In this document: one piece after another, positions 2,562 through 20,282 of the stretch | Position numbering within the stretch: the stretch's first letter is position 1 | Layout: the number at the start of each line of letters is the position of its first letter | From: a virus | Length of the DNA stretch: 34,805 nucleotides | Virus record (IMG/VR): IMGVR_UViG_3300030090_000611 | Span: 1 to 34,805 of that record | Direction: 5' to 3' (one strand) | The notes under the pieces: generated by a model | What the model saw: the letters and a program-made list of their open reading frames with translations, nothing else | What the model was told of the DNA's origin: nothing | Databases searched by the model: none | Made by a program: the position numbers and the translations under genes

Positions 2562-3962
2562 ATGGGATTTTTTAAAAAAATATTCAAAGGTATCGGTAAA
2601 GTTTTTAAAAAAATTGGAAAAGGAATTAAAAGAGCCTTTAAAAAATTTGGAAAGTTTATGGGTAAACTTGGTATAGTTGGACAGCTTGCAATGATGTTTA
2701 TCCTACCGGGGATAGGAGGTGCGCTCTTAAAGGGCTTTGGAGCAATGGCAGGTAAGATGGCAGGGTTCACTAGTAAATTTGGAGGTTTAGCTGGTAAAGC
2801 TTTAACTACTGTTGTTAAAGGAGCAGGTACTGTTCTTAAAGGAGCGCACAGCTTTGTACAAACAGGAGTCAATGCTTTTAAAACAGTAACCAATGGTATT
2901 ATGGAATTTGGTAAAACTGCTTTAAATAAACTTCCGGGTATAAATATACAAAGTGCTACTCCTGATTTTTTTGGCGAAGAAGGTGTATTTAATAAAATAT
3001 CCACAGATGCAAAAAGAATTTTTGATCCTTTTAAATCTAGTATAACTGCAACAAAAGATATGACTTTAAAATCTTTAAGTAAAACTACAGGACTATCTGA
3101 AGGGCAATTACAAAGATTAAATGGAGCTACTGATTTAACTCAAATGAAACAAGGCATGAAAATTAATTTAGATTTTAATAAAATGCCAGTAGATAAAACA
3201 ATACCCGGATATACGCTAGGATCAGGTCTACCTGCTGTTAATCCAAGTGATGTTAACTATGAGTCATTAAATAAATCTGTTAGTCCTGATATGGTTCAAA
3301 ACTTTGATGCTTCGTCAATACCTGAAGCACCTTTTAAAACTGACACACCTTTTAGTGTAGATGCAGCGGCAGGAACTTCTATAGAAGCTCAATCATTACC
3401 TAATTATAATTTAGAAAGAGGTTTTGGAACTGAAGCACCTTTTAAAACTGATGCTTCTTCTCTACTAGGTGCTGCTCCAGAGTCTTTAGTAGGTACTGAT
3501 AAAGAGTCTTTATTATTAGGAAGTGATTTTAGTCCAGAAAAAGGTTTTACTACTGATGTAGATTTATCAGGAGCAACTAGTAGTATAGGTGATAGTACAA
3601 AAGAATTTTTTAGAGATAAAGTTTTTAAGCTTGAACCCGGAGAAACTTTTGGTCAAGGATTTAAACGACAAACAGGAGAAGCTATTGGTTCTCAAATTAG
3701 AAGTGTTGCAACACAGTCAATACTTGGTGGAGGGCAAGAAGCACCCCCTGAAGAATTTGTAGGTTCTTATGGGCAACCTGTAGATGCTGGTACAGTTCAA
3801 ATTACAGCGGCTACCCCTATGAATGATGTTTATAATCAAGCTTATAATGCTCCTGCGTTTGGAGGAGGAGCATACTTAAATCAATCTTTAGATATATTTA
3901 ATATGAATTTAGGTGCTGGTACTTATCGACAATTTGCTCCAAGAGCCGGGGGAATGGCATAA
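2562..3962 (+). CDS. Virion-type protein with cationic amphipathic N-terminus
   Basis: A protein of 466 aa. I chose ATG 2562 (MGFFKKIFKG) over the in-frame ATG 2523, which lies inside the upstream gene; a GTGGGG stretch precedes 2562. Residues 1-37 hold 13 Lys/Arg and no acidic residue, with Phe/Ile spaced as in an amphipathic helix. A Gly/Ala/Met/Leu-rich hydrophobic stretch follows at about 36-70. This resembles membrane-active peptides. The rest is low-complexity and polar; the motif EAPFKTD occurs twice in the middle. The stop overlaps the next start as TAATG. I do not recognise the family. Its place between virion-type genes suggests a structural or ejected protein that can touch membranes or DNA. 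Confidence 0.8.
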   Translation: MGFFKKIFKGIGKVFKKIGKGIKRAFKKFGKFMGKLGIVGQLAMMFILPGIGGALLKGFGAMAGKMAGFTSKFGGLAGKALTTVVKGAGTVLKGAHSFVQTGVNAFKTVTNGIMEFGKTALNKLPGINIQSATPDFFGEEGVFNKISTDAKRIFDPFKSSITATKDMTLKSLSKTTGLSEGQLQRLNGATDLTQMKQGMKINLDFNKMPVDKTIPGYTLGSGLPAVNPSDVNYESLNKSVSPDMVQNFDASSIPEAPFKTDTPFSVDAAAGTSIEAQSLPNYNLERGFGTEAPFKTDASSLLGAAPESLVGTDKESLLLGSDFSPEKGFTTDVDLSGATSSIGDSTKEFFRDKVFKLEPGETFGQGFKRQTGEAIGSQIRSVATQSILGGGQEAPPEEFVGSYGQPVDAGTVQITAATPMNDVYNQAYNAPAFGGGAYLNQSLDIFNMNLGAGTYRQFAPRAGGMA

Positions 3963-4492
3963 TGGCTGTAGAAAATCCTAATGATCCTTTATTTAAAGTA
4001 GCTTTTAATAGACCTATACCCGGAGAATCTTTAGTAAATAGTCCTGAAGAACCTTATCCTTGGGAAAAACCTACGGAGTTTAATTCTGTATATAAAGCTT
4101 CTGAATATCTTTTTGAAGAACTTACGGATGAGGATATGTACCCTGCTATTATATCTTTACTTGATAAAGGAACTCCTGTATTAAGCCTTGCTCAGATTAT
4201 TTTATTTAAAGGTTTTAATGAAGGTAAATGGAATCCTGATTTAATGATGTTGTTACTAGAGCCGACTGTATATATGTTAGCATCTTTAGCAGAAAGAGCT
4301 GATATTGATTTTGTATTAGATGTTGATGATGATGAAGAAGAAAACTACGAATCTCAATTTACTACTAAGACAAAATTTAATGTTCTTAAAAATCTTCAAG
4401 ATCCTGAAGTCCAATCAGTCAGCCCTGAACTCGAAGAAAAAATAGATGAAGTTTCTGAAAAACTTCCAAGCTTACTAGATAAGGAACAATAA
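3962..4492 (+). CDS. Conserved-type phage protein, acidic, unknown function
   Basis: A protein of 176 aa beginning MAVENPNDPL. It shares one base with the stop of the gene before (TAATG) and one with the gene after, so the three are translationally coupled. The middle is helical and hydrophobic (PAIISLLDKGTPVLSLAQII), followed by an acidic patch DVDDDEEE near residues 120-127 and a charged C-terminal helix. It has no signal peptide and no catalytic motif. Given its position inside the virion block it may be a small tail or internal virion component, or a chaperone for one. Confidence 0.8.
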   Translation: MAVENPNDPLFKVAFNRPIPGESLVNSPEEPYPWEKPTEFNSVYKASEYLFEELTDEDMYPAIISLLDKGTPVLSLAQIILFKGFNEGKWNPDLMMLLLEPTVYMLASLAERADIDFVLDVDDDEEENYESQFTTKTKFNVLKNLQDPEVQSVSPELEEKIDEVSEKLPSLLDKEQ

Positions 4493-6357
4493 TGTTAGGT
4501 GATAATGAAGATTTAAACTTAGATCAGTTAGGTCAACAGCTTTCGGCACAAGCTGCTAAAAAAGGAGAAGAAAGAAGAGCAGCAGCAGAAGCGGGAGGTG
4601 GTAATCAATTAATAGATTCTCTTAAAGAGTTTGCAGTTAATGCAGCAGTAGGGGGCGTAACTAATTTCTTTAACACTAGAGCAAATAAAAAAGCTTTTGA
4701 GTTTCAACAAAGAGAAGCAATACAAGCTGCTACAGCTAAATATAATAATGGTGTAGATAATGCTATAAAGCTAAAACAAGATTGGGCAGAAGCTACTAAT
4801 TTTGCGGGGGGCCGAAGAGCATGGGCTATTCAAAAATTTAGACCTATATTTGAAAAAGAACTATTTAAAAATATAGATGAAAAAACTTATACAAAAGATG
4901 GGATAGATAAATATCTTGATCAACGACTTGAAGAATATGTTGATAAAACTTTTATGCCTTTATTTGTAGCAGGAAATGCAGCAGCAAATAGAATGAACAA
5001 TACTAAAGAGGATTTCCAAAGATTTATTTTAGTTAATGATGGTATTGCTGATAATGCAACTGGTGCAGTTTTTCAAGCAGCTAAAAAATTATTTACAGGT
5101 AAAGATGGTAATGCAATTAAAGCTGAAGCAAAAATTGTTAATTCTAATCTTGTAAAAACAGCAGAAGGTGTTAACTTAATTAGTAGGTTAATGTATCAAG
5201 GTTTAGATGTTAAAGATGCAGTTAAAGTTGGAAAAGAGTTTGAAAAAAATAGATATACTGATGCTGATTATAATATTGAAAAGAGTAGAGAATTTAAAAC
5301 TGAAAAACATACAATAGATGGTATTGATGTAACTTTAGGGTTTACTAAAGTAGTAAGGGCAAATGACAGAGATCAAACACGAACCTTCCGCATTTATGAA
5401 GATGGAAGCCAAAAATTTGCAGATCAACTAAACGGAGAGCGTTTTGAAACAAAAGATTTAAATATATCTGGAGATTTAGTTCAGCGACAAACTGTTTATA
5501 GTATAGTAAAAGGACAACCTCAAGAACCTTTTGTAAGGTATAAATATTTAGGAGTAGATGAAGAAGGAGTTCAAGGTATTTCAGATCAAGCAAGTACAAC
5601 TGCTAATAATATGTTCAAAGAATATATTAATTTAACTCCTGTAGCAGAAGGAAGACCTCAAGTTTTTGGAGACTACACTGACATAGATAATAAATCTTAT
5701 AATGGAGGTGATGCTTTTTCATCAGAAACTCCTGATTCTGTAATAAATGCTCAAATAGCAAATAAAGATAAACATACTGTTAAAAATGCGGCTCGTATAA
5801 GGAGTAATTTTAAAATTGCAGACTATGATCAAAACGATAAAGAATTATCTTTGCATATTGCAACCGCTGCTCGTATGATTGATATAAGAAGGATGTTTGA
5901 TGATGAAGGCCCTCTTGCAACATCTACTCTTGATTTTGGTTCTAGTAGAAGAATTGCAACTTCAGAGCCTTCTTATTTAGAAACATTTGAAGCAATAGGG
6001 TTAGTTAATGCTGTTAATCCAAGTATTAAGATAGATGGAAAAATGATAAATGACATAGCTAATTTAGGCCCATTTTTAGAAGAGTTACGTTTTTTAAAAC
6101 AAGATGCAATAGAAGAATTAAACAAAGATCAATTTGGCCCTATAAGAAGAAGAATAACAGAATTATACAATACATTTACAAAGTATGAAAAAAATGATGC
6201 GTATAAATTTTTGTTTGATGAAAATATGATAAAGACAAAACTTATTGTAAGCCAAGGTAAAATTATAAGTAGAACAATAAAGCCAGAACTAAACGAAGTA
6301 CCTACATCAATTTTTCAAGAAGTTGAAAGTTTATATACTTTAGCACAACAACAATAG
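4492..6357 (+). CDS. Large virion-type protein (internal virion/ejection protein candidate)
   Basis: A protein of 621 aa with an ATG coupled to the upstream stop as TAATG. The N-terminal 40 residues are Ala/Glu/Gln/Arg rich. There is a short hydrophobic stretch around 45-60, then a long Lys/Glu/Asp-rich helical body with few cysteines. No enzyme motif was found. It lies directly before the 1801 aa giant, the place taken by middle-sized internal virion proteins in T7-like phages (gp15 before gp16). I assign it only by position and size; a sequence relation to gp15 cannot be claimed from reading. Confidence 0.8.
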   Translation: MLGDNEDLNLDQLGQQLSAQAAKKGEERRAAAEAGGGNQLIDSLKEFAVNAAVGGVTNFFNTRANKKAFEFQQREAIQAATAKYNNGVDNAIKLKQDWAEATNFAGGRRAWAIQKFRPIFEKELFKNIDEKTYTKDGIDKYLDQRLEEYVDKTFMPLFVAGNAAANRMNNTKEDFQRFILVNDGIADNATGAVFQAAKKLFTGKDGNAIKAEAKIVNSNLVKTAEGVNLISRLMYQGLDVKDAVKVGKEFEKNRYTDADYNIEKSREFKTEKHTIDGIDVTLGFTKVVRANDRDQTRTFRIYEDGSQKFADQLNGERFETKDLNISGDLVQRQTVYSIVKGQPQEPFVRYKYLGVDEEGVQGISDQASTTANNMFKEYINLTPVAEGRPQVFGDYTDIDNKSYNGGDAFSSETPDSVINAQIANKDKHTVKNAARIRSNFKIADYDQNDKELSLHIATAARMIDIRRMFDDEGPLATSTLDFGSSRRIATSEPSYLETFEAIGLVNAVNPSIKIDGKMINDIANLGPFLEELRFLKQDAIEELNKDQFGPIRRRITELYNTFTKYEKNDAYKFLFDENMIKTKLIVSQGKIISRTIKPELNEVPTSIFQEVESLYTLAQQQ

Positions 6358-6366
6358 GTAAATAGT

Positions 6367-9300
6367 ATGGCAATAGTAACTTCTTCATTATATGATGACT
6401 CTGAAATAAATAATTTATTATTAAAAAGTCCATCATCAATAGATGATACTCCTAAAACGACAAATGATTTAAGCACTAATAGTTTTGTTTTAAGACACGG
6501 TGTTCCTTTAGTTGAAAAAATTGAAAATAGTAATGCTTTTTCATCTTATTTTAATCAAGGTATAACTGATGCTTTTTTTGATAAACCTAAATACTTTGAT
6601 GGTGATGATGTTATTTCTCATTTAAGAAAACAACAATCTGCACTATTAAGTGCTGGAGCTATTTCTCAAATTTTACAGACAGATGAGTTTAATGATTTTG
6701 ATAGAGAAAACTATGCAAAATTAAAAACTATGTTTGATAATGTAGGCCCTGAAGGATTTACTGAATGGGTAGATGCTATTGTTTCAAATACTGGTCATGT
6801 TCTTAATGACCCTGCTACTTATGTAGGAGGAGGCATAGGAGCTTTAGGAATAAAAGGTTTAATTAAATTAGCACAGGTTTCAAATAATCCTTTATTAAAG
6901 AAAGCAGCAGCTAAATATGTAGGTACAGGATATACTGGATTTGCCTCACAAGGAGCAGCTTCTGGTCTTATATATGGAGGTGTGGCTAATGTAGGCCAAC
7001 AAAATCTTAATTTAGCTTTAGGTTTACAAGATGAATTTAAATATGGAGATTTGGGTATTGCGGGTATTACAGGATTTGGAGGAGGAGCAGCGATTGGAAC
7101 AGCTTTAAGAGGTATACCTGATGTTGCTTCTAAAACAAGAAATTTATTTAAAAACGATAATGATCAAAAAGTTTTTAATAAAACAATAGATGAAGAAGTT
7201 GTTCATAATAACATTAAGAATGATACAGGAGAACCTTTACAAGACTCTATTGTTATAGAAGCTATACCTTATATACAATCAAAAGAAACAAAAGTATACT
7301 ATGATACCTCTGAAGAGTTTATTGAGGCTGCGTTACCTGTTGAGGGGCCTTCTAGGTGGCAACAAAAAAGAGCAAAAGAATCTTCAAAGAAAACAAGACT
7401 AGAAGAAAAAGAAGAAAGATTGTATGGTGGTTTTATGACAGAAGAAATGATCATGCAAGCCTCCAAAGATTATAATGTTAATCCAAATGAGATTATAGAA
7501 AATGCATTAGACTACGAAGCAAGTAGAGATATTCCTTCTATTGAAGATGTATCAGATATGGCTTTTTATTATGAAGTAGATCAAAGTCCTTTTATTCCTA
7601 GAAGCTGGAATGATGAATATAAAAATATTTATAAAGATCATAATGCGCTAGAGAGTTCTAGAACTTTTAGAGAAAAATCTATGCGTAATTTTAGAGATCA
7701 TATGGATGCAAAGAAACAAGCTAAAGAAGAAAAAAGATTAAAAAGACAAAAACAAAAAGATGCTTTATTAGAAAAAGAACAAGCAGAAAGACCAAACCCT
7801 TTTGTTATTGAACCTATAAATTACACTCCTCCAAAGTATGATCACTATGATGCTATTATTGATATGGCTAAAGATTTAGATTATGTAGATCCTCCGAAGC
7901 AATCTTTAAATGCAGGTCAAAAGTTTTCGGACGATATTGGAGGAGGTAACCAAGTAGCAGAAGAAGCCGCAGATATTCATCAACAAGTTAATACAGGACA
8001 GATTACTCCTGATACTGCTAGAGCAAGACTATCTAAAGCAATACAACGAATACATGGTGTTTATCTTTTTGGAAAGCCTACTAAAATTTTAACACAATTT
8101 TTAAATGATTCAAAAATAGCTACAGACTTAGCAGCAAGAATAAGATACGATGCTAACAAAACTTATTCGTCAGATTCTGAAGCTGTTAATTTTGATTACA
8201 ACGAAACTTATAAAGAATATGCAGGTGGTTTATATTCTAGTTTTATGAGAACTCTTGAAAACATTAGACCTTTTATGAGAGGCAAAGGGAAAGATACTAC
8301 TTTTGAATTATTATCTAGGGCATTAAGAGGAGAACGTAGCGAGTTTGATGAGATTAATGCGGCTGCTGATGAAATAAGAATTAATATATTTAATAAAGTA
8401 GCAGAAGATAGTGATCGTTTAAATATTAATCCTGATGTAGATATTAGCAATTATTTTCCTAGATTGTGGGATCGTTCTGCAATAATAAAAGATTTTTACG
8501 GTACTAAATTTGAACCTATTTTAGATAAAGGCAAATATGCAGGGCAAGGCGAAATGAAACTTGCAAAGATGTTGCTTGAAGATGGTCAAGCTCAATCTGA
8601 ACAAGAAGCGTATAAAATTGTAATGGATATGCTAGATAAAAAAGGTAGTGATTTACATAGTTCTGGTAATAGTTTTTTTACTAAAAGAATATTTGATAAA
8701 ATTAAAGACGATAACAAATACAGTGAGTTTTTAGATAATGACATATCTAATGTTATTTATAACTACATAACTCAAGCGGCAGGTACACACGCTAAAAAAA
8801 CTGTTTTAGGTGTAGATAATATTGTTCAGTTTGAAAAAATGTGGGTAGATAAAATAGCAGAAGAAGTAACTTCTAAAAGAGGTAAGAGTGCTTTTAGCGC
8901 AAGCGATAGAGAACAAATTCTTCATTTATATAAAACTATTACTGGAGAAGAGTTAGAAGATTTTGGCCCCGCAGGTCAGTTTATTAGAGATGGTTATGTG
9001 ATGCTTACAAGAATGGCAACGCTACCTTTATCTACTATTTCAAGTTTAACAGAAGTATTAATTAATGTTCAAAAAGCTGGACTAGGACAGACTGCAAAAG
9101 GAATGGGATTTGCGTTAAATCAAGGAACTAAGTGGTTGACTGCTAGTTTAGCTGATAAATTAATGAAAAATCATAATTTAAGCAGACCTGAAGCTATAAA
9201 TGAAATGAGAGAGTTTTTCTTTTTTGTAGATAATGCGGCTGTTTCTAGTGTAGATCGTTTAGCTGATGCATCTATCGCTAATAGAACTATGCAGAATATT

Positions 9301-11772
9301 AATAATAAATTTTTTAAAATTGTTTTACTAGATGGTTGGACTAGATTTGTACAACTTGCATCATACAGTGCTGGTAAAAGTTTAATACATAAAAATTTAA
9401 AGATGATAGCAGATCACGGTAATCTTGCTCCATCTAAAAGAATTAGATTAGCAAGGGATCAACTTACTGAATTAAATGTAGATATTGATCAAGGTTTAAA
9501 TTATCTTAAAAGAAATGATGGAGAAATAAATGTTGATGATGCTTTTTACTATGATATTAAAAAAGGTGCGGCTAGATATACAAACGAAGTTATACTAGAT
9601 ACTAGTGGTAGGGCAGGAGTTAATTCTACTTTTATTAATAATCCTATGAAAACTATGTTTACTCAGCTAATGGGATACCCTGCTGCTTTTACTAATGTTG
9701 TACTAAAGAATTTTGTTAGAGGTCTTAAAAATCCTTATAGCGCACCAGATACTATTGCGGCTGCTTTAATGATGACCGCAGGAGCTTCTGGATTAAACTA
9801 TGTAAGAACTGGTGGAGAAGGATACGATGAAAAAAATGCAGCGCAGATTGCTGGAGAAGGGTTAGCAAGATGGGGTGGTAATGGTATTATCCTAGATCAA
9901 ATGCAAAGAGTAGCTAAAACTTATGATATGACAGGCGGCAATTTAGCTTCTGCTGCAATTTCTGCTACTGGCATACCCGGACAAGATTTAATAAAACTAG
10001 GATATATAGGCCCCGGAAGTCTCTTAGCAACTAAAGCACCCGGATATGGAGCATATAAAACAGTTTTTGGTAAAGACTTTAAAGATAAATATGATGATGT
10101 AACAGGTATAAGAAAAGTATATAGAACAGATTATCGAGAGGGTGGAGAAGTCAAGGATGTGCAGAATGTCATAGAAAATCCTGAAGATCGTATAGACCCT
10201 TATACAAATCTACCTTATAGTGATACTTATGAAGAACGAACAAGATATGTATTTGGAGGTTTAATTGGTAGCCTATCTAGAACTATAACAAAAGCTTTAA
10301 CTAGAAAAGGAATTAGACCTGATCCTGATATGGTTAAAAGAGTAGCAGATGAAATAGAAGAGGGTGTGTACCATCATAATGATCCTGATGTGCCTACAGA
10401 TCCTTTAATGGAAGAATATGTTGATAGGGCTACACGATCTTTAATAGATGAAAAGCATGATAAAAATTTAGTAGATATGAAAGGAGAGTTTCCAGAATTT
10501 TTTGACCCTCAAGGTCGCCTTCAAGGAAGTGAAGAGTTTAGTAGAGCAAGAGGTTACTTTGAAGATCAGATAGATAACTTTCAAAAAGAAGGACAGCTTG
10601 AAAATAAAATGATTTCGGGTCAAGACTACAGAAATTATATTCAAGAAAAACTACTAACTATACCCGGAGCAATAAACAATACTGATTATACACTTAAAAA
10701 CTATAAAAATTATTTAAATGAAAAAATAAATCTTGGCACAGAAAAATGGTTTTTAAATGAAAATAGAGGTACTGTTAAAGATTATTTAAAAAAATTACCT
10801 GAAATAAAAAAAGACAGTAAGAATATGTCAAATAAAATAATAGCTTCTTTAGATGCTGAAGAGCGAAGAATGCTACAAACTTTTGGATCACAGCTACCTA
10901 TATTGCCTAAAGCTGGTTTAGATCCATTATATTTAAACCTGACTAAAAAAGAAAAGAAAGAAAACTTAGAGCGTTTTTTAAAAGACTCTAAAGAAAAGAA
11001 AATCTTTTTTAGAACAACTAGAGATGGTTTTGATTTTGAATGGCAAGAGTCTGTGATAATGCCTTTTGAAACAGGTATGCATATCGGCACTCAAAAACAA
11101 GCAGAGTTTATTGCGGGTAGACACATGGGCGTGATAAGAATGGCAGAAGAAGCTATGAATTTGTCAGGCAAACAAATAACTCAAAGATTCCAAAGACCTA
11201 TTCCAAAAGATATTTCTGCACGAACTTTGAATACTACTATGTTTAGAGGATATATTTCTGTTAAAAATCCACTAGTTATTGATAAAGACTTTGGAGATTG
11301 GAGAGCAGAAAATTATCTTACTGAGAGAGAACAACTTGCGTATTTACTAGATGCTATTAAAGAACAATCTAATATTAGCGATGAAGTTGTAGATGAAGGC
11401 ATAGGTAAATTGTATGTAGAAGCAGGAAAATATATCCGATGGTTTCAAAGACAAGATCAATTAATACCAGAATTAAGTAAGGATGGAGGCGAAGCAAGTT
11501 TTATTTTTAAACAAAAAGATCAAATAAGAAGAGCCTATATAAATAATTTAACTAAAAGATTTTTTCAATCTATGGGGTTTGACTCCATAGCATATAAAAA
11601 TACTTTTGAAACTCCTAAGAAATCTAAACAAGAATACTCTTATATTTTGTTTGAGCCTAATCAATTTAAAAATATTTCGGCTGAAGAGTTTGATATAGAA
11701 GATCCAAGATTTAATGTACGAACAGGTGGATTATTAAAATCTTTAAAAAAGAAGGTGCAAGTAAATGGCTAG
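6367..11772 (+). CDS. Giant 1801 aa virion-type protein with C-terminal ADP-ribosyltransferase-like domain
   Basis: The largest gene of the window, last of the coupled virion block and overlapping the LysM gene by 8 nt. Residues about 140-255 are Gly/Ala-rich and hydrophobic, a likely membrane-active segment. Residues about 320-480 are charged and helical. Residues about 870-1250 hold further hydrophobic helices (TLPLSTISSLTEVLINVQ; TQLMGYPAAF). Near 1546-1770 the order of motifs is IFFRTT (1546-1551), GMHIGT (1570-1575), YISVKNPL, GFDSIAYKN (1737-1745) and YSYILFEPNQFKN (1757-1769). That order and spacing match the ADP-ribosyltransferase domain found at the ends of phage polyvalent proteins (ART-PolyVal type: FHGT, HFGT, NLKNPL, GYDGIVY, SYIVFxPxQIKS). 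The first motif has Arg where the usual one has His, so activity is uncertain. By size and place it is the analogue of T7 gp16-type ejected proteins; a role in host modification is inference. Confidence 0.85.
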   Translation: MAIVTSSLYDDSEINNLLLKSPSSIDDTPKTTNDLSTNSFVLRHGVPLVEKIENSNAFSSYFNQGITDAFFDKPKYFDGDDVISHLRKQQSALLSAGAISQILQTDEFNDFDRENYAKLKTMFDNVGPEGFTEWVDAIVSNTGHVLNDPATYVGGGIGALGIKGLIKLAQVSNNPLLKKAAAKYVGTGYTGFASQGAASGLIYGGVANVGQQNLNLALGLQDEFKYGDLGIAGITGFGGGAAIGTALRGIPDVASKTRNLFKNDNDQKVFNKTIDEEVVHNNIKNDTGEPLQDSIVIEAIPYIQSKETKVYYDTSEEFIEAALPVEGPSRWQQKRAKESSKKTRLEEKEERLYGGFMTEEMIMQASKDYNVNPNEIIENALDYEASRDIPSIEDVSDMAFYYEVDQSPFIPRSWNDEYKNIYKDHNALESSRTFREKSMRNFRDHMDAKKQAKEEKRLKRQKQKDALLEKEQAERPNPFVIEPINYTPPKYDHYDAIIDMAKDLDYVDPPKQSLNAGQKFSDDIGGGNQVAEEAADIHQQVNTGQITPDTARARLSKAIQRIHGVYLFGKPTKILTQFLNDSKIATDLAARIRYDANKTYSSDSEAVNFDYNETYKEYAGGLYSSFMRTLENIRPFMRGKGKDTTFELLSRALRGERSEFDEINAAADEIRINIFNKVAEDSDRLNINPDVDISNYFPRLWDRSAIIKDFYGTKFEPILDKGKYAGQGEMKLAKMLLEDGQAQSEQEAYKIVMDMLDKKGSDLHSSGNSFFTKRIFDKIKDDNKYSEFLDNDISNVIYNYITQAAGTHAKKTVLGVDNIVQFEKMWVDKIAEEVTSKRGKSAFSASDREQILHLYKTITGEELEDFGPAGQFIRDGYVMLTRMATLPLSTISSLTEVLINVQKAGLGQTAKGMGFALNQGTKWLTASLADKLMKNHNLSRPEAINEMREFFFFVDNAAVSSVDRLADASIANRTMQNINNKFFKIVLLDGWTRFVQLASYSAGKSLIHKNLKMIADHGNLAPSKRIRLARDQLTELNVDIDQGLNYLKRNDGEINVDDAFYYDIKKGAARYTNEVILDTSGRAGVNSTFINNPMKTMFTQLMGYPAAFTNVVLKNFVRGLKNPYSAPDTIAAALMMTAGASGLNYVRTGGEGYDEKNAAQIAGEGLARWGGNGIILDQMQRVAKTYDMTGGNLASAAISATGIPGQDLIKLGYIGPGSLLATKAPGYGAYKTVFGKDFKDKYDDVTGIRKVYRTDYREGGEVKDVQNVIENPEDRIDPYTNLPYSDTYEERTRYVFGGLIGSLSRTITKALTRKGIRPDPDMVKRVADEIEEGVYHHNDPDVPTDPLMEEYVDRATRSLIDEKHDKNLVDMKGEFPEFFDPQGRLQGSEEFSRARGYFEDQIDNFQKEGQLENKMISGQDYRNYIQEKLLTIPGAINNTDYTLKNYKNYLNEKINLGTEKWFLNENRGTVKDYLKKLPEIKKDSKNMSNKIIASLDAEERRMLQTFGSQLPILPKAGLDPLYLNLTKKEKKENLERFLKDSKEKKIFFRTTRDGFDFEWQESVIMPFETGMHIGTQKQAEFIAGRHMGVIRMAEEAMNLSGKQITQRFQRPIPKDISARTLNTTMFRGYISVKNPLVIDKDFGDWRAENYLTEREQLAYLLDAIKEQSNISDEVVDEGIGKLYVEAGKYIRWFQRQDQLIPELSKDGGEASFIFKQKDQIRRAYINNLTKRFFQSMGFDSIAYKNTFETPKKSKQEYSYILFEPNQFKNISAEEFDIEDPRFNVRTGGLLKSLKKKVQVNG

Positions 11773-13165
11773 TTATACTTTAAAAAAGGGAGACACTTTA
11801 TATTCTATAGCAAAGCAATATAATACTGATGTTGCATCGCTTCAAATGTTAAATAGTATTTCAGATCCAAATGCCATGAAGATAGGCTCACAACTATATG
11901 TTCCTTCTCTTTCTCTTGTTGAGCAGGTTGAGTCCTTTAAAAAAGAACCTACTATCGGAAAAGAAATAGAAAAATTAAAACAAAGAGGTTCTAGTCTTAA
12001 AGGAGACTTTGTACCTCCCTCTTTATCTGGAAGGAATGTAGTTCCTGAAAGAATACAAAAAGAAGAACCGCCTGAACCTGAAAAAAAAATTACAAAAATC
12101 TTAGAAGAAAAACAAAGAACTTTTACACCGCCTCAGAAGTATCAAGGCTTTGGAAGAATAACAAATCCTTTTGATCCTGAAGTTAGGGCGCAAGCGGCAA
12201 AATATGAGGAAGAAAAAAAAGAAGAAGAAAATGATCCAATAAATTTTATAGTTGAAACTTTACTTTTACCAGAAGCTAAAGCGTTTGTTCCTGAAGAAAT
12301 TAAAACTCCAGTAATTAAAGAAAACTTTAAAGGAAAACTGCTAGATAAAAGTGGTAGTGCTTATACTACTGTTGTTGATACAGAGTTAAAACCTAAAGAA
12401 AAAACTATTTCAGGCATTGTTGAAAAAGGCCAAGCAGAAGCATTACAACGATTTTTAAATGCAGGGCCTATAGATATTACTTCTTATTTTAAAGATCCTA
12501 AAAAACGTGTTGTATTAGATATGAGCGACCCTATTGGTTTTGTAAAAGAAAAAAGAACGCAAGGAGCTAGTGATGTTTATTTATTATCTCATATAGTTTC
12601 TGCTATTCAAGAGCATAATAAAAAAGCCCCCGGAGAAGATGCGTATAAATTAGATCCTTTAAAACAAAGCTTAGTATGGATCTTTGGAACTAGTCCAGAA
12701 AAAGTAAATGAATTTAAAAATTATGCGGATAAAAAAATATTTAGATATAAAAATACTAGTCCTTTAGTAGAAAGAATTGAAAATGATTCTAATCAACAAG
12801 AAATTGAAGACTATGCTGATTATGTTTCTACTTTATCATCAGAAGAAAAAAAGAAAGAATTTAAAAAACAAAGTAAAATAGCTAGAGATCTTGGTATTAG
12901 TAATGATGATGAGCTAGTTCGTAACGCAGTTGAGTATTTAAAACTTCAAAGTATTTATGGAGCAGGTAAGCCAGTGTTAATAAAAGAAGGTGGTAATACT
13001 ATAGTAGATGAAAAAGTTTCTCAATATTACACTAGTTTAAAAAGACATCCTAGAGATAAAGAAGAAATAAGAACATTAACGCAAGTCTTAAACAGAATAA
13101 GGACTCCTAATCCTAATGATGAATATGATTATGTTTCAATAGCAGCGACAGGTAGAGGATTATAA
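11765..13165 (+). CDS. LysM-domain protein, peptidoglycan binding
   Basis: A protein of 466 aa. Residues 3-48 form one LysM repeat (YTLKKGDTLYSIAKQYN, then a Leu/Asn turn and IGSQLYVP), the family that binds N-acetylglucosamine glycans such as peptidoglycan. No signal peptide precedes it, so it is more likely part of the particle or released at lysis than secreted. The remaining 400 residues are Lys/Glu/Pro rich and partly disordered (PPEPEKK), with helical stretches near the end and no recognised hydrolase. It overlaps the giant protein by 8 nt and is followed without a gap by the M15 peptidase. This suggests wall contact during entry or a partner of the lysin. Confidence 0.85.
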   Translation: MASYTLKKGDTLYSIAKQYNTDVASLQMLNSISDPNAMKIGSQLYVPSLSLVEQVESFKKEPTIGKEIEKLKQRGSSLKGDFVPPSLSGRNVVPERIQKEEPPEPEKKITKILEEKQRTFTPPQKYQGFGRITNPFDPEVRAQAAKYEEEKKEEENDPINFIVETLLLPEAKAFVPEEIKTPVIKENFKGKLLDKSGSAYTTVVDTELKPKEKTISGIVEKGQAEALQRFLNAGPIDITSYFKDPKKRVVLDMSDPIGFVKEKRTQGASDVYLLSHIVSAIQEHNKKAPGEDAYKLDPLKQSLVWIFGTSPEKVNEFKNYADKKIFRYKNTSPLVERIENDSNQQEIEDYADYVSTLSSEEKKKEFKKQSKIARDLGISNDDELVRNAVEYLKLQSIYGAGKPVLIKEGGNTIVDEKVSQYYTSLKRHPRDKEEIRTLTQVLNRIRTPNPNDEYDYVSIAATGRGL

Positions 13166-13534
13166 ATGTACAAATATTTTACAGCAGATGAACTAAAGTG
13201 TCAACACTGTGGAGCAGAAGGTATTGATGGATACTTTATGGCTAAGATAGATAATTTACGCGAAGAGTTAGGTTTTCCATTCCCTGTTACTTCTGGTTAT
13301 CGTTGCCCAAAACACCCCATAGAAGCTCGTAAGAAGGCTCCGGGGGCGCATACGACAGGCAAGGCTATAGATATAGGGGTATCTGGAAATGATGCTTATA
13401 TCTTAATAGAGGCCGCTATACGAGACAACTTTACAGGGATAGGTATAAATCAAAAAGGTAATAACAGGTTCATACATCTAGATATTATACCACACTCATC
13501 TAGTTCGCCTCGCCCTTGGATATGGAGTTATTAA
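13166..13534 (+). CDS. M15 family peptidase, endolysin candidate
   Basis: A protein of 122 aa, usual length for the M15A group of zinc D,D- or L,D-peptidases that cut peptidoglycan cross-bridges. The visible hallmarks are a CxxC near the N-terminus (C12, C15), SGYRCPKHP at 43-51, GAHTTGKAID with zinc ligands H62 and D69, and FIHLD with the third ligand H104. It has no signal peptide, so it needs the holin encoded next (2 nt gap) to reach the wall, or it is carried by the virion. Neighbouring LysM and holin genes support a lysis role. Confidence 0.88.
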   Translation: MYKYFTADELKCQHCGAEGIDGYFMAKIDNLREELGFPFPVTSGYRCPKHPIEARKKAPGAHTTGKAIDIGVSGNDAYILIEAAIRDNFTGIGINQKGNNRFIHLDIIPHSSSSPRPWIWSY

Positions 13535-14897: not shown

Positions 14898-15176
14898 ATG
14901 GCTGATCCAAAGAAAGGAACTGGTAAAAAACCTAAAGGTAGTGGTAGAAGATTATATACGGATGAAAATCCTAAAGATACTGTACGAATTAAATATGCAA
15001 CTGTTCAAGACGCTAGAGATACAGTACGAAAGGTGAAAAATATTAGAAAGCCTTTTGCCAGAAAAATACAGATACTAACTGTTATGGAGCAGAGGGCTAA
15101 AGTAGCAGGTAAAAAGAAACAAGCAGAAATAGCAAAGCAAGGAAAAGAATCTATACGAAGAAAAAATAAAAAATAA
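14898..15176 (+). CDS. Small very basic protein 2
   Basis: A protein of 92 aa abutting the previous stop. It starts MADPKKGTGKKPKGSGRRLY, has a helical centre (VQDARDTVRKVKNIRKPFARKI) and ends SIRRKNKK. The order of this gene after the GQWSARKAQ protein is familiar from marine phage contigs, but no function is known. It is the last gene before the glutamine riboswitch-like RNA, which begins only about 4 nt after its stop. A DNA- or RNA-binding role is inferred from charge alone. Confidence 0.75.
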   Translation: MADPKKGTGKKPKGSGRRLYTDENPKDTVRIKYATVQDARDTVRKVKNIRKPFARKIQILTVMEQRAKVAGKKKQAEIAKQGKESIRRKNKK

Positions 15177-15179
15177 ATT

Positions 15180-15229
15180 ACGTTCATCCTTATAGGACGG
15201 AAGTAGGCATATAATGCCGAAGGAACGCA
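15180..15229 (+). ncRNA. Glutamine riboswitch-like RNA (glnA / Downstream-peptide group)
   Basis: The stretch folds into a three-way junction. P1 is CGTTC (15181-15185) with GAACG (15223-15227). P2 is TCCT (15187-15190) with AGGA (15194-15197). P3 is GGCA (15206-15209) with TGCC (15215-15218). The joining strands read CGGAAGTAGG and CCGAAGGAACGCA, which are the conserved bases I know from the glnA RNA motif, a glutamine-binding aptamer of cyanobacteria, marine metagenomes and phages. A small peptide gene with a strong ribosome site follows 36 nt later, the usual arrangement. Which of the two glutamine classes it belongs to cannot be settled by eye. Confidence 0.82.
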
Positions 15230-15264
15230 TTGATGAAGTTTATCAATCTAACTGGAGGTATAAT

Positions 15265-15411
15265 ATGGCTGAATATTACAGAGGCTTTAAGCATGACGGA
15301 AAAATAAAAGAATCTTCAAAAGTTAAATCAGGGATTTATCGTGGAGTAAAATGGTATGAAACAGACTCAACAGAAAATACTGACAAAAAAAGAACTGAAG
15401 GAACTAATTAA
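15265..15411 (+). CDS. 48 aa YRG-motif peptide under riboswitch (DUF4278-like)
   Basis: I chose ATG 15265 because GGAGG lies 6 nt ahead (15254-15258). The in-frame ATG at 15214 sits inside stem P3 of the riboswitch and would translate the RNA itself. The peptide starts MAEYYRGFKHDGKI and holds two YRG motifs, YYRGF (4-8) and YRGVKW (25-30). These resemble the short YRG-repeat (DUF4278-type) proteins that follow glutamine riboswitches in marine cyanobacteria. In cyanobacteria such small peptides are tied to nitrogen status; whether this phage copy acts on host nitrogen metabolism is inference. Confidence 0.75.
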   Translation: MAEYYRGFKHDGKIKESSKVKSGIYRGVKWYETDSTENTDKKRTEGTN

Positions 15412-15441
15412 ACAACAACAAAATAAAAGGCACACTCAATA

Positions 15442-15687
15442 ATGGCATTAAAAAAATCTCAAAGATCTTTAAAATCTTGGACAAAACAGAAGTGGCGTAC
15501 TAAATCTGGTAAGCCTAGTGCTAAAACTGGAGAAAGGTATTTGCCTGAAAAAGCTATCAAAGCTTTATCTTCTAAAGAATATGCTGCAACTACTCGTAAA
15601 AAACGAGAAGATACCAAAAAAGGTAAACAGCATAGCAAGCAACCTAAAAAGATTGCAAAGAAAACAAGGAGCTATAGAAAGAAATGA
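15442..15687 (+). CDS. Small very basic protein 3
   Basis: A protein of 81 aa, about one third Lys/Arg, starting MALKKSQRSLKSWTKQKW. The segments SGKPSAKTGERYLPEKAIKA and the tail KKIAKKTRSYRKK recall a conserved small protein of T4-like and podovirus-like marine phages of unknown role. Its stop overlaps the next start as ATGA. It lies downstream of the riboswitch and could be co-transcribed with the YRG peptide; no terminator was seen between them. Confidence 0.75.
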   Translation: MALKKSQRSLKSWTKQKWRTKSGKPSAKTGERYLPEKAIKALSSKEYAATTRKKREDTKKGKQHSKQPKKIAKKTRSYRKK

Positions 15688-16019
15688 GAGAAGCATATAA
15701 GAAAGGAAGTAAAACCAAAAAGAAAAAAGATCCTCGACTAGCAAAGGCAGGTGTTTCAGGATATAACAAACCTAAAAGAACTCCAAAGCACCCTACAAAA
15801 TCCCACGTTGTAGTAGCCAAGCAAGGAGATAAAATAAAAACAATTCGATTTGGTCAACAGGGCGTTAGAGGGGCAGGTAAGAATCCTAAGAGCGCAAAAG
15901 ATAAAGCTCGAAAAAGATCATACTATGCTAGGCATAACGCACAAGATCCTAACCCTTCTAAACTTTCAGCTCGTTACTGGTCGCATCGTGTTAAATGGAA
16001 AGACGGAGGACAGGTATGA
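15684..16019 (+). CDS. Small very basic protein 4 (DUF6321-like)
   Basis: A protein of 111 aa with an ATGA overlap to the previous gene. Its features are KKKDPRLAKAGVSGYNKPK (15-33), TKSHVVVAKQGDKIKTIRFG (about 38-57) and a C-terminal YWSHRVKW. I recall this combination from marine phage proteins of unknown function (DUF6321 group); the number is from memory and should be checked. The sequence is strongly basic with a short beta-like centre. Together with the three other basic proteins it may bind DNA or RNA, but no experiment is known to me. Confidence 0.75.
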   Translation: MREAYKKGSKTKKKKDPRLAKAGVSGYNKPKRTPKHPTKSHVVVAKQGDKIKTIRFGQQGVRGAGKNPKSAKDKARKRSYYARHNAQDPNPSKLSARYWSHRVKWKDGGQV

Positions 16020-16440: not shown

Positions 16441-16644
16441 AGCTTCTAGCTCCCCCTCTAAATATGAGTGCATCTTTTCAAGCTTAACTTTACTTTCTTT
16501 TATAATTTTACGCATCATAGTTTTATCGTGTTTAGTTTTAAATACTTGATCTATTTTTTCTTCAGGGAGTCCAGATAACTCTGTGACTACTTGACCTTTA
16601 GAGTTTATTAAAACTTTAAAAGATATTAAGTTAGCTTCTTTCAT
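16432..16644 (-). CDS. Small helical protein after nrdB, unknown
   Basis: A protein of 70 aa, last gene of the leftward run. Its start overlaps the nrdB stop by ATGA, so it is probably translated together with it. A short beta-like start (LISFKVLINSKGQVVTEL) is followed by a charged helix (MMRKIIKESKVKLEKMHSYLEGELEAL). No cysteine pair is present, so it is not a glutaredoxin or thioredoxin for the reductase. Function unknown. Confidence 0.7.
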   Translation of the reverse strand: MKEANLISFKVLINSKGQVVTELSGLPEEKIDQVFKTKHDKTMMRKIIKESKVKLEKMHSYLEGELEALN

Positions 16645-17615
16645 TGGATTAATTCCGCAAATTGAACATTACTAACATCTCCTCTTAATCCCGCCTTCAT
16701 GTATGACGTTGCTCTACCTTCAAAAAAGTTTTGATGCTCTACTCCTAATACATCATCTAACCATGTAAGAGGATTATCTTTTACATTGTAGTTAGGTTTT
16801 AATCCAAGTTGTAATAGTCTTCTATCAGCTATGTATCTTATATACTGGCTCATCTCTTTCTTTGTTAACCCTTTTATATCCCCCATATTAAACACAAGAT
16901 TTAAGAACCTATCTTCTAAGTCTACCATTTCTCTACAGGCTTGATATATTTCTTTCTTAAAATCATCTGTCCATAGCTCTATGTTTTCTTGCATATATTC
17001 TCTGAATAACTGAGTCATAGCTTCAACGTGCAATGATTCATCTCTTATACTATACGTTATAATTTGCCCCATGCCTTTCATTTTACCGAATCTTGGGAAG
17101 TTTAAAAGAATTATAAAGCTACTAAATAATTGAAGACCCTCTGTAAAAGCAGAGTAAACCGCTAGTGCTTTAGCTATACTTTGTTTATTTCTTTCTGTTA
17201 CTTTAATATCATTAATGTATGCGTGTTTATCTGACATAGCTTCATACTCTGCAAAAGCTTTATATTCTAACTCAGGCATACCTACAGTGTCCAACAACAA
17301 ACTATAAGCGTGTTGATGGATAGATTCCATATTATTAAAGGCTCCCATCATCATACGAGCTTCAGGCTTTTTAAAAATTTTCATGTACCTGTCTACATAA
17401 CCTGTACTTACATCTACATCAGATTGAGTAAACAGTCTAAATATCTGTGTTAATAGATTCTTTTCTTTATCATTAAGGTGTTGCCAATCTTGTACATCGT
17501 TATGTAGCGGCACATCTTCAGGGAACCAATGCATTTGATTTTGTTGAACATAATAATCAAACATCCAAGGATGGTCGAAGGGTTTATAATAATCTCTTGT
17601 TGCTGTTAAACTCAT
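16641..17615 (-). CDS. nrdB: Ribonucleotide reductase class I, small (beta) subunit
   Basis: A protein of 324 aa, close to the usual length for phage beta subunits. It makes the radical that NrdA uses to reduce ribonucleotides to deoxyribonucleotides. The di-iron ligands are readable: D66, E97 and H100 (ESIH), E159 (FTEGLQ), E193 and H196 (DESLH). Y104 stands 7 residues after E97, where E. coli has the radical Tyr122, so a tyrosyl-radical enzyme is expected. It overlaps its upstream neighbour as TAATG and is separated from nrdA by four small genes, which is unusual. Phages use it to feed replication from the host's ribonucleotide pool. Confidence 0.95.
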   Translation of the reverse strand: MSLTATRDYYKPFDHPWMFDYYVQQNQMHWFPEDVPLHNDVQDWQHLNDKEKNLLTQIFRLFTQSDVDVSTGYVDRYMKIFKKPEARMMMGAFNNMESIHQHAYSLLLDTVGMPELEYKAFAEYEAMSDKHAYINDIKVTERNKQSIAKALAVYSAFTEGLQLFSSFIILLNFPRFGKMKGMGQIITYSIRDESLHVEAMTQLFREYMQENIELWTDDFKKEIYQACREMVDLEDRFLNLVFNMGDIKGLTKKEMSQYIRYIADRRLLQLGLKPNYNVKDNPLTWLDDVLGVEHQNFFEGRATSYMKAGLRGDVSNVQFAELIQ

Positions 17616-17809
17616 TAGCTCATCCCTTGTATTGTGTTTAATTTTTCTTGTGCTGTAGATAATGCCCCTACAAGATCATCTATGTCTTGCACTATATCTG
17701 GATGCTCTGCTACCGCTACTGCATTATCTAAATAGTTTTTTAAATTAAGTTGTATTATTTCAATTTCTGCTTCGTACTTCAGCTCTAAAGCTTTTAAGTA
17801 TGGATTCAT
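17615..17809 (-). CDS. Small coiled-coil protein between nrdA and nrdB
   Basis: A protein of 64 aa, coupled on both sides (ATGA upstream, TAATG into nrdB). Almost the whole length is an amphipathic, acidic helix (LKALELKYEAEIEIIQLNLK ... VGALSTAQEKLNTIQ). It has no catalytic residues. It may be an accessory factor of the reductase or simply a co-transcribed gene; I do not recognise it. Confidence 0.7.
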   Translation of the reverse strand: MNPYLKALELKYEAEIEIIQLNLKNYLDNAVAVAEHPDIVQDIDDLVGALSTAQEKLNTIQGMS

Positions 17810-18039
17810 TGTAAAGTCTCCTCATATTTCTCGCGTAACCAATCATTATATTTATTGCAGTATCTTTCTAAGGACATATGTTCAGATGTAATGTTGTTGT
17901 GTTCATCACAGTAGTCTAACCACATCCTAATTTTAAAACTATTAAAAACACTCTCATTAAAAGGTCTTGATTTAAATTTTAAATAGTTAACAAATTGTCT
18001 TGTTTCGCTTATGTAATATTGAGCATCTTCAACGCTCAT
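17806..18039 (-). CDS. Small protein, unknown
   Basis: A protein of 77 aa starting MSVEDAQYYISETR, rich in Tyr/Asn/Glu, with two cysteines (LDYCDEH, ERYCNKY). AGGAGG lies 7 nt before the ATG and overlaps the end of the upstream membrane gene (ATGA). No family was recognised. It is translationally coupled with its neighbours in the nrd cluster. Confidence 0.7.
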   Translation of the reverse strand: MSVEDAQYYISETRQFVNYLKFKSRPFNESVFNSFKIRMWLDYCDEHNNITSEHMSLERYCNKYNDWLREKYEETLQ

Positions 18040-18230
18040 ATTATGCCTCCTAATTTATTATTAATTTCCCACAGTAAATATATAACAACTCCTAAACCTG
18101 CGGCTAGGATTGTATGATACCACACCCACCTAACTTTATATATTCTTAATTCAAGTCTTCTTTCTTCTTCAGCTAATTTGTAATACTTAACGACCTCTTC
18201 TAATTCAGATTCAAATATTTTATCTTTCAT
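18036..18230 (-). CDS. Small membrane protein, partner of the lipoprotein gene
   Basis: A protein of 64 aa starting at ATG 18230, which shares one base with the stop of the lipoprotein gene (TAATG), the same coupling used elsewhere here. A longer frame to 18275 exists but would run inside that gene. Residues 1-30 are a charged helix (ESELEEVVKYYKLAEEERRLE). Residues about 38-57 are a membrane span (ILAAGLGVVIYLLWEI). With the lipoprotein before it, the pair resembles a two-gene envelope unit; a spanin role is possible but the anchor is not at the N-terminus as in known inner spanins. Confidence 0.65.
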   Translation of the reverse strand: MKDKIFESELEEVVKYYKLAEEERRLELRIYKVRWVWYHTILAAGLGVVIYLLWEINNKLGGII

Positions 18231-18397
18231 TATACATAACACTCGCAAATTATCTTTGAACCTATACGTTCGCATATTTTTATTTCTTCTTTAAAGCGGC
18301 ATTTAAGATTTTCTGGGGTCATATAGTCCCATACTGGCGCACTGTTATTAGAGGAGCAGCCAGTTAATAATATAAATAACAATAGTTTAACCTTCAC
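18230..18397 (-). CDS. Small lipoprotein overlapping the end of nrdA
   Basis: A protein of 55 aa with start GTG 18397, 11 nt inside the 3' end of nrdA, and a GGAG 10 nt upstream. The N-terminus MKVKLLLFILLTGCSSN is a complete lipoprotein signal with lipobox LTGC and lipid-bearing Cys14. The mature part carries four more cysteines (33, 42, 51, 53) in the spacing C-x8-C-x8-C-x-C. No stop interrupts the frame and the next gene starts on its stop (TAATG), so I consider it real despite its size. An outer-membrane spanin or superinfection-exclusion lipoprotein are the likeliest roles; both are inference. Confidence 0.68.
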   Translation of the reverse strand: MKVKLLLFILLTGCSSNNSAPVWDYMTPENLKCRFKEEIKICERIGSKIICECYV

Positions 18398-20282
18398 AAC
18401 TAAGACACTCCATATCTTCTAAATTTATTCTTGGTATTTTTAAGTTGACATTCTCTGTAGATCTAGCAGCATCTGACCTTAAATAATATAAAGACTTGAG
18501 CTTAGTAGCTCCAGCCCAATGTACACTATTAACATAATCAAGATAAAGATCATGGACTTCCTGCGATTCCGTAGCCTTTGGAAAACTAAAGAAAAGATTG
18601 ACGCTTTGACTTTGGCAGATGTATTGTTGTCTTTGTTGTGCGTGTTCAATGACCCATAGTTGGTTATATTCTGGCGCGGTTTTAAATAATTCTTTTTCTT
18701 CTTCAGATAGTTCTTCAATATGTTGAATAGACCCTTCATTAGCAGCAATATCGCGCCAAGTTTTTTCATTATCTAACCCTTTATTTTTGAGAATATTTCT
18801 AAGGTATTTGTTCTTAACCTTATAAGAACCTGTAAGAGTTTTGTGGGTAAATATGTTAGCCCTTTGTGGCTCAATACTAGGAGAAGTTCCACCACATATA
18901 ATACTAGAACTGGCATTAGGAGCAATAGCCAACAAGTGAGAATTACGAAGATTGCTACCGACCATATCAGGAGCCTCCCCACGTTCAGCACAAAGTCTTT
19001 TACTAGCATCCCTAGCTCTTTGCTTAATGTGTGAAAAGGCTCTATGATTGAAACTTGTGGCATACATACTTTCAAAACTGATTCTATTGCGCTGTAAGTA
19101 ACTGCAAAAACCCATCGCTCCAAGCCCAATCGCACGTTCTCTATACGCTGAATAAGCGGCTTTAACAAACCCTTCATTGGATTCTTTAACATAATTTTTA
19201 AACCTCTCGTAGTTTGCGTTGTATTTTCCAAGAGCATTAGTATCGACTGAGTGTTCAATAAAATGTTCTAAGACATTATCTAGCATTGTAATTAAATCAT
19301 CAATAAAATTATCATCTTTAACCCACTCATCAAAGTACTCTAGATTAACAGAACTTAAACAACACACGGCAGTTCGTTCTTCATTAGTAGGTAGAGTTAT
19401 TTCTGAACAAAGATTACTCTGACTAACTTCTAATCCTAAATCTTTTTGTTGTGTAGGTAAAGCTTCATTGCAGCGATCAAGATTTACGATATAAGGCTCC
19501 CCTGTTTCTGCTCTGGTATTTATGATTTGCCACCACAGATCTCTAGCAGGGAGTATCTTAATAGCTTCTTTAGATTTAGGATCTATTAAACGCCACTCAG
19601 TATCATCTTGTACTGCTTTTAAAAAGCTATCATTAATAGTAACTGCGTTATGTAAATTTAAACATTTACGATTAAGATCACCTCCAGTAGTTTTACGCAT
19701 ATTAATAAACTCTTCTACTTCTGGATGTTGTATATCCATGTAAGCAGCATACGATCCTCTCCTAGTTACACCTTGATTGAAGGCTAACATTTGAGAATCT
19801 ACAATATGCATGAAAGGGATAGAACCAGTAGACTGACTACCGTTAGAAGTGCTAGTACCGTTGCTGCGAACACTAGACCAAGATCCACCGATGCCTCCAC
19901 CTCCACTTGCAAGCCAAATGTTTTCATCGTAATGATCAGATAAACCAGACCTTGAATCAGGAACATAATTAAGAAAGCAGCTAATAGGGAGGCCACGACT
20001 AGTTCCTGCGTTACTAAGTATAGGAGTACTAAACCCAAACCAATGATCACTTGAGTAGTTATAAAGTCTTTGTGCAAGATCGAAATCAGTAACACCTTTA
20101 TAAGTTGAACAATATGTAGCGGCCCTTGCAAAAGCTTCTTGAGCATGAGTTTCATCCTTCCAAAAATATCTATCTTTAAGTGTGTCCAAAGAAAAATTAT
20201 CTAAGTTTTTTTCTTTGTCGTAATCAATTTCAATTCCTAAATAGAATTGTTTACCTTTTTTATTTGAGGTCTTTGATACCAT
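18387..20282 (-). CDS. nrdA: Ribonucleotide reductase class I, large (alpha) subunit
   Basis: A protein of 631 aa, shorter than the bacterial enzyme (about 760) because the N-terminal ATP-cone is missing, which normally means loss of dATP feedback inhibition. Readable active-site parts are the redox Cys102 (PISCFL), N290-x-C292-x-E294 (NLCSEI, the radical cysteine), the second redox Cys307 (CCLSSVNL), the Tyr599-Tyr600 pair of radical transfer (SLYYLR) and the C-terminal CLSC pair (626-629) that hands electrons from thioredoxin or glutaredoxin. AAGGA lies 8 nt before the ATG. It acts with NrdB; no thioredoxin gene is seen in the window, so a host one is probably used. Confidence 0.95.
   Translation of the reverse strand: MVSKTSNKKGKQFYLGIEIDYDKEKNLDNFSLDTLKDRYFWKDETHAQEAFARAATYCSTYKGVTDFDLAQRLYNYSSDHWFGFSTPILSNAGTSRGLPISCFLNYVPDSRSGLSDHYDENIWLASGGGGIGGSWSSVRSNGTSTSNGSQSTGSIPFMHIVDSQMLAFNQGVTRRGSYAAYMDIQHPEVEEFINMRKTTGGDLNRKCLNLHNAVTINDSFLKAVQDDTEWRLIDPKSKEAIKILPARDLWWQIINTRAETGEPYIVNLDRCNEALPTQQKDLGLEVSQSNLCSEITLPTNEERTAVCCLSSVNLEYFDEWVKDDNFIDDLITMLDNVLEHFIEHSVDTNALGKYNANYERFKNYVKESNEGFVKAAYSAYRERAIGLGAMGFCSYLQRNRISFESMYATSFNHRAFSHIKQRARDASKRLCAERGEAPDMVGSNLRNSHLLAIAPNASSSIICGGTSPSIEPQRANIFTHKTLTGSYKVKNKYLRNILKNKGLDNEKTWRDIAANEGSIQHIEELSEEEKELFKTAPEYNQLWVIEHAQQRQQYICQSQSVNLFFSFPKATESQEVHDLYLDYVNSVHWAGATKLKSLYYLRSDAARSTENVNLKIPRINLEDMECLSCEG

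What the first reader, a model, noticed from the sequence alone, without database searches (positions are those of the whole stretch)
10981..11772. ADP-ribosyltransferase-like domain at the end of a giant, probably injected virion protein
Residues about 1546-1770 of the 1801 aa protein show in order FFRTT, GMHIGT, YISVKNPL, GFDSIAYKN and YSYILFEPNQFKN, matching the motif order of ART-PolyVal domains. The gene sits in the place of T7-like ejected proteins. If the protein enters the cell, the phage would deliver a host-modifying enzyme with its DNA, as T4 does with Alt, but fused to an ejection-type protein. The first motif has Arg in place of His, so it may be altered or inactive.
Basis: partly seen in the sequence, partly recalled or inferred. 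Interest (0 to 1): 0.78.

Follow-up and report, generated by a model that had tools for sequence, protein, structure and literature searches.

The report
ART-like tail on phage ejection protein
A marine virus of bacteria carries, at the end of a very large protein that is probably injected into the host with the viral DNA, a conserved domain related to enzymes that chemically tag host proteins, but with an unusual active site whose activity has not been tested.

Summary
The 1801-aa protein (6367-11772) ends in a domain (about residues 1525-1797) that carries all five motifs in the stated order. It is a weak, sub-threshold Pfam ART-PolyVal match (23.1 bits; cut-off 31.2), but it belongs to a large, well-conserved family: 80 IMG/VR loci collected, and a profile built without the window or its nearest relative finds it at 8e-66. 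The AlphaFold model (pLDDT 82.5) has the expected strand order and resembles viral proteins named ART-PolyVal, though at modest TM-scores; no solved ART is hit. The "His to Arg" change is not a lesion: Arg is kept in 46 of 49 family members, with an invariant His in strand 2 and Asp at strand 5 (R-H-D instead of H-Y-D), under purifying selection. The protein's core is homologous to the LUZ24-type "phage particle protein" (8e-25) and sits in the ejection-protein gene position. The domain is either fused to this protein or encoded in the very next gene, and is patchy among siblings. Best reading: an ART-type effector module carried on an injected virion protein. This is a new variant of the known polyvalent-protein theme; injection and catalysis are inferred.

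The parts
6367..11772 (+). giant protein, 1801 aa: N-terminal region, conserved alpha-helical core, linker, C-terminal ART-like domain
7849..10236 (+). conserved core, residues 495-1290; mostly helical model; homologous to Bruynoghevirus (LUZ24-type) particle protein
8983..9939 (+). residues 873-1191, direct tblastn match to Bruynoghevirus virion structural protein
10939..11757 (+). ART-like domain, residues about 1525-1797
11005..11019 (+). strand-1 motif FFRTT, R1549 (R in 46/49, N in 3/49)
11074..11091 (+). strand-2 motif GMHIGT, H1572 invariant (51/51)
11251..11274 (+). YISVKNPL, strands 3-4
11575..11601 (+). strand-5 motif GFDSIAYKN; D1739, Y1743, N1745 invariant
11635..11673 (+). strand-6 motif YSYILFEPNQFKN; S1758, F1762, Q1766 invariant
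3962..4492 (+). 176-aa gene in the gp14-like position; homologues upstream of the equivalent gene in HTVC115P and HMO-2011
4492..6357 (+). 621-aa gene in the gp15-like position
11765..13165 (+). 466-aa LysM protein, overlapping the giant gene by 8 nt; LysM is fused behind the ART-like domain in some relatives
13166..13534 (+). M15 peptidase (probable peptidoglycan hydrolase)

Best explanation
The gene encodes an internal (ejection) virion protein of the LUZ24-type podovirus line, with a C-terminal effector module of the ADP-ribosyltransferase superfamily, distantly related to ART-PolyVal. The helical core probably helps move DNA across the envelope, and the C-terminal domain probably enters with it and uses NAD+ to ADP-ribosylate a host target at the very start of infection. 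Shown: motifs, family conservation, ART-like model, homology of the core to a phage particle protein, and coupling of the module to this protein in cis or as the next gene. Inferred: packaging, injection, cytoplasmic exposure, NAD+ use and the target. The active site is predicted to use R1549, H1572 and D1739 instead of the H-Y-D of the prototype.
For: Domain: Pfam ART-PolyVal 1.4e-4 on the fragment and hits in 30 of 53 family members, best 9.6e-7; family profile 8.4e-66; AlphaFold pLDDT 82.5, pTM 0.80, strands in ART order with R, H and D on or at strands 1, 2 and 5; 12 BFVD matches at E<=1e-3, one of them named PolyVal ADP-ribosyltransferase, with more such names lower down. Constraint: 13 invariant columns, dN/dS 0.03-0.37 in the 40 closest pairs. 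Carrier: core profile hits PaP4 gp53, annotated 'similar to LUZ24 phage particle protein', at 8e-25; PHROG virion structural protein 5.7e-19; gene order 176/621/1801 aa matches 125/597/1055 aa in PaP4. Module: fused in 51 ORFs; in 23 others it is the next gene behind the core protein, gap -26 to +13 nt. Concept: ARTs in polyvalent injected proteins (PMC5512222, PMC9503650).
Against: Below Pfam's curated cut-off. The Pfam alignment covers only the C-terminal half (profile 57-138), so strand-1 and strand-2 equivalence rests on the model and motif order. Two of three canonical catalytic residues differ. No solved ART is hit by Foldseek and TM-scores to viral matches are modest (0.3-0.5). Profile-profile comparison with nine canonical N4-type ART-PolyVal sequences gave no significant match. 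LysM directly downstream suggests that part of the complex contacts peptidoglycan, where NAD+ is expected to be scarce. The core gives no PDB fold match, including T7 gp16. No virion proteomics.
Confidence: 0.57

Rival explanations
1. Catalytically dead ART fold: the domain descends from an ART-PolyVal enzyme but has lost transferase activity and serves as a binding or assembly module of the virion protein.
For: H to R in strand 1 and Y to H in strand 2 relative to the H-Y-D prototype.
Against: R1549, H1572, D1739, E1568, N1745, E1748, S1758 and Q1766 are invariant or nearly so across 51 diverse sequences and the domain is under purifying selection; loss of chemistry alone would usually relax the pocket. 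The domain also occurs as a separate gene and is missing from many siblings, which is unlike an essential assembly part.
Confidence: 0.22
2. The module acts at the envelope: together with LysM and the M15 peptidase it is part of the wall-penetration apparatus and never reaches the cytoplasm; its activity, if any, is not ADP-ribosylation.
For: LysM follows the ART-like domain in the same ORF or the next gene; M15 peptidase adjacent; PHROG labels the family endolysin.
Against: No hydrolase domain is found in the giant protein or its relatives; the endolysin label is explained by LysM alone; ART-related motifs have no precedent in wall hydrolysis known to me.
Confidence: 0.12
3. Not an ART at all: a different alpha/beta domain whose strand motifs resemble the C-terminal half of ART-PolyVal by convergence.
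For: Sub-threshold Pfam score, half-domain alignment, no PDB fold match, failed profile-profile test.
Against: Hits to the same single Pfam family in 30 of 53 members and structural matches to proteins named for that family; shared tail motif FD..DPR with a canonical-looking member.
Confidence: 0.09

Closest known systems
ART-PolyVal (Pfam PF18760), prototype in Roseovarius Plymouth podovirus 1 vRNAP CBX87992 (PMC5512222)
   Same: Domain in a giant, probably injected podovirus protein; motif order Y-x-G-[TS], G-x-x-x-x-T, x-V-x-N-P-L, G-[FY]-D-[GS], strand 6; strand-5 Asp.
   Different: Arg for His in strand 1 and His for Tyr in strand 2; about 90-residue helical insert between strands 4 and 5; carrier is a LUZ24-type particle protein with no N4 RNA polymerase; score below the Pfam cut-off.
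Bruynoghevirus (LUZ24-type) particle protein, PaP4 gp53, 1055 aa
   Same: Homologous core in collinear segments, same place in a small/medium/large gene triplet.
   Different: Ends after the core; has no ART-like domain.
T4 Alt
   Same: Idea of a virion-borne ART; Arg in strand 1.
   Different: Alt is of the R-S-E clade; the strand-2 Ser and the strand-5 Glu are not seen here; no sequence relation found.
T7 gp16 and other ejection proteins (PMC8954989)
   Same: Largest, last gene of the ejection triplet; mostly helical; gp16-C is placed in the host cytoplasm.
   Different: No sequence or fold match found; no N-terminal transglycosylase.

Membership tests
ART-PolyVal PF18760 | score above curated cut-off (31.2 bits) | tested here: not met
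   11.6 bits full length, 23.1 bits fragment; 18.3 bits in record scan
ART-PolyVal PF18760 | H (strand 1), Y (strand 2), D (strand 5) active site | tested here: not met
   R1549, H1572, D1739; only D agrees
ART-PolyVal PF18760 | sequence relation of strands 3-6 | tested here: met
   profile 57-138 in the window and similar spans in other members; 30 of 53 hit; still below the cut-off
ART superfamily | split beta-sheet fold with NAD pocket | tested here: inconclusive
   model has six core strands in order; BFVD ART-PolyVal-named matches at TM about 0.3; no PDB ART match
ART superfamily | NAD+ binding and ADP-ribose transfer | not testable with these tools
   needs biochemistry
polyvalent (injected multidomain) protein | encoded among late virion genes and fused to a virion protein | tested here: met
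LUZ24-type particle (ejection) protein | homologous core | tested here: met
   PaP4 gp53 at 8e-25; tblastn about 1e-5
LUZ24-type particle (ejection) protein | present in the virion | not testable with these tools
   needs virion mass spectrometry
T7 gp16 | gp16 fold or transglycosylase domain | tested here: not met
   no PDB match for the core, no Pfam transglycosylase hit
T4 Alt (R-S-E clade) | R, S and E active site | tested here: not met
   strand-1 R present, strand 2 has H, strand 5 has D

The most novel reading that the evidence does not exclude
A widespread marine podovirus subfamily of ART with a new R-H-D catalytic triad rides on ejection proteins as a swappable C-terminal cargo, so that the ejection protein serves as a general injector of enzymes into marine bacterial hosts.
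Probability: 0.3. Interest if true: 0.8.

Novelty: new variant of a known kind. Interest (0 to 1): 0.55.

Why it matters
Virion-borne ARTs are described as mostly a feature of contractile-tailed phages (PMC9503650 reports ARTs in only 3% of siphoviruses and podoviruses). A conserved ART-like family on ejection proteins of marine podoviruses would widen that picture, give a testable case of a non-canonical active site, and offer a natural cargo for tracking which part of an ejection protein reaches the host cytoplasm.

Tried and rejected
Single-sequence searches with the domain found nothing in isolated phages or IMG/VR; only after collecting terminase and core relatives did the family appear. 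A second family member also found nothing in isolated phages. Bacterial genomes: no relatives by pattern. The Pfam family in 398 genomes of one phylum gave nothing at 1e-6; the control rang nowhere, so the threshold was probably too strict and the result is uninformative. PDB by sequence profile: only noise. hhalign against canonical N4-type ARTs: too shallow, no significant match. HTVC115P gp40 and HMO-2011 gp22, the positional equivalents, are not detectable homologues. The PHROG name 'endolysin' was rejected as a function: only LysM supports it. NCBIfam gave no relevant hit.

Full report
Observation. The ORF at 6367-11772 (+) encodes 1801 aa. PHROG 7348, named 'endolysin', matches residues 513-1251 at 4e-119 and the C-terminal fragment at 1.3e-25.

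Source. The large terminase is 67% identical to that of Pelagibacter phage HTVC115P and related to that of HMO-2011. The window is therefore most likely a fragment of an HMO-2011-like marine podovirus.

Family. Direct searches with the domain failed. Records sharing a closely related terminase or the conserved core were gathered and searched whole. This gave a first alignment, which in turn found 115 IMG/VR stretches, of which the best 80 were kept. In 51 dereplicated sequences E1568, H1572, G1574, G1628, P1635, D1739, Y1743, N1745, S1758, F1762 and Q1766 never vary; R1549 is Arg in 46 of the 49 that cover it and Asn in 3; E1748 is Glu in 49 and Asp in 2. A profile without the window and its nearest relative hits the window at 8.4e-66, and none of 1000 shuffles reaches E=10. 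dN/dS (Nei-Gojobori) lies between 0.03 and 0.37 in the 40 closest pairs. The domain is thus real and maintained.

What the domain is. Pfam ART-PolyVal is hit by 30 of 53 members, best 9.6e-7. AlphaFold2 gives pLDDT 82.5 and pTM 0.80: strand 1 at 1546-1552 holds R1549, strand 2 at 1571-1574 holds H1572, strands 3 and 4 follow, then a long helical insert, strand 5 at 1740-1744 just after D1739, and strand 6 at 1757-1761. Foldseek finds no solved ART but 12 predicted viral proteins at E<=1e-3, one named PolyVal ADP-ribosyltransferase, with further ART-PolyVal names lower down; TM-scores are modest. Iyer et al. 2017 (PMC5512222) define the polyvalent ART active site as H-Y-D, with the prototype fused to the N4-like vRNAP of Roseovarius Plymouth podovirus 1; that protein reads YHGT...GLFFT...GGYDG. 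Here the corresponding places read YRG[TS], G.H.GT and GFDS. The Asp is kept, the other two differ. The equivalence of strands 1 and 2 rests on the model and motif order, because neither Pfam nor hhalign aligned that half.

Carrier. The core (residues 495-1290) is homologous to a Bruynoghevirus virion protein annotated as similar to a LUZ24 phage particle protein: tblastn about 1e-5, family profile 8e-25 in collinear segments. Gene order 176, 621, 1801 aa mirrors 125, 597, 1055 aa in PaP4 and the gp14/15/16-like ejection triplet described for podoviruses (PMC8954989). The core model is almost all helix at moderate confidence (pLDDT 72.3), with no PDB match. A direct link to T7 gp16 was not shown.

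Architecture. The module is fused to the core in 51 ORFs; in 23 others it is the very next gene, with gaps of -26 to +13 nt (loci not dereplicated). It is often followed by LysM, which in the window is a separate overlapping gene. Among 20 records of 32-72 kb with terminases at least 75% identical, seven clearly carry it, one weakly, and twelve show none (some are incomplete). This fits a cargo module that is gained, lost and re-fused. The Bruynoghevirus protein ends shortly after the core, so the module is not needed by the carrier type as such.

Mechanism. Most likely the protein is packaged, ejected with the DNA, and the C-terminal domain ADP-ribosylates a host factor early. Packaging is supported by homology; injection, cytoplasmic exposure, catalysis and target are inference. 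LysM nearby is a caution that part of the assembly may sit at the wall.

Novelty. ARTs in injected multidomain virion proteins are a published idea (PMC5512222, PMC9503650). New here are the R-H-D subfamily, its fusion to a LUZ24-type ejection protein, and the fused-or-next-gene arrangement. Searches for papers naming ARTs together with pelagiphages or with podovirus internal virion proteins found nothing relevant, within the limits of that library.

Noticed in passing
PHROG 7348 versus window 6367-13165: The family is labelled endolysin, but only a LysM domain supports that; no hydrolase domain was found in the giant protein.
   Followed up: partly
L132:6152-8836 and L204:7394-9616: C-terminal regions of a related giant protein and of an ART-bearing next gene show weak DUF6973 matches, perhaps another swappable module.
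   Followed up: no
L002:14038-19719, L003:16927-20313: The positional equivalents in HTVC115P and HMO-2011 show no detectable similarity to the giant protein although flanking genes and terminase are related.
   Followed up: partly
window 14898-16019: Three small, strongly basic ORFs (92, 81, 111 aa) of unknown role.
   Followed up: no
window 16641-20282: Ribonucleotide reductase beta and alpha subunit genes on the minus strand, as in HTVC115P.
   Followed up: no
G003 (L125, L126): The record is cut inside the giant gene: the ORF runs off both contig ends, so core and ART-like part appear as two open ORFs.
   Followed up: yes
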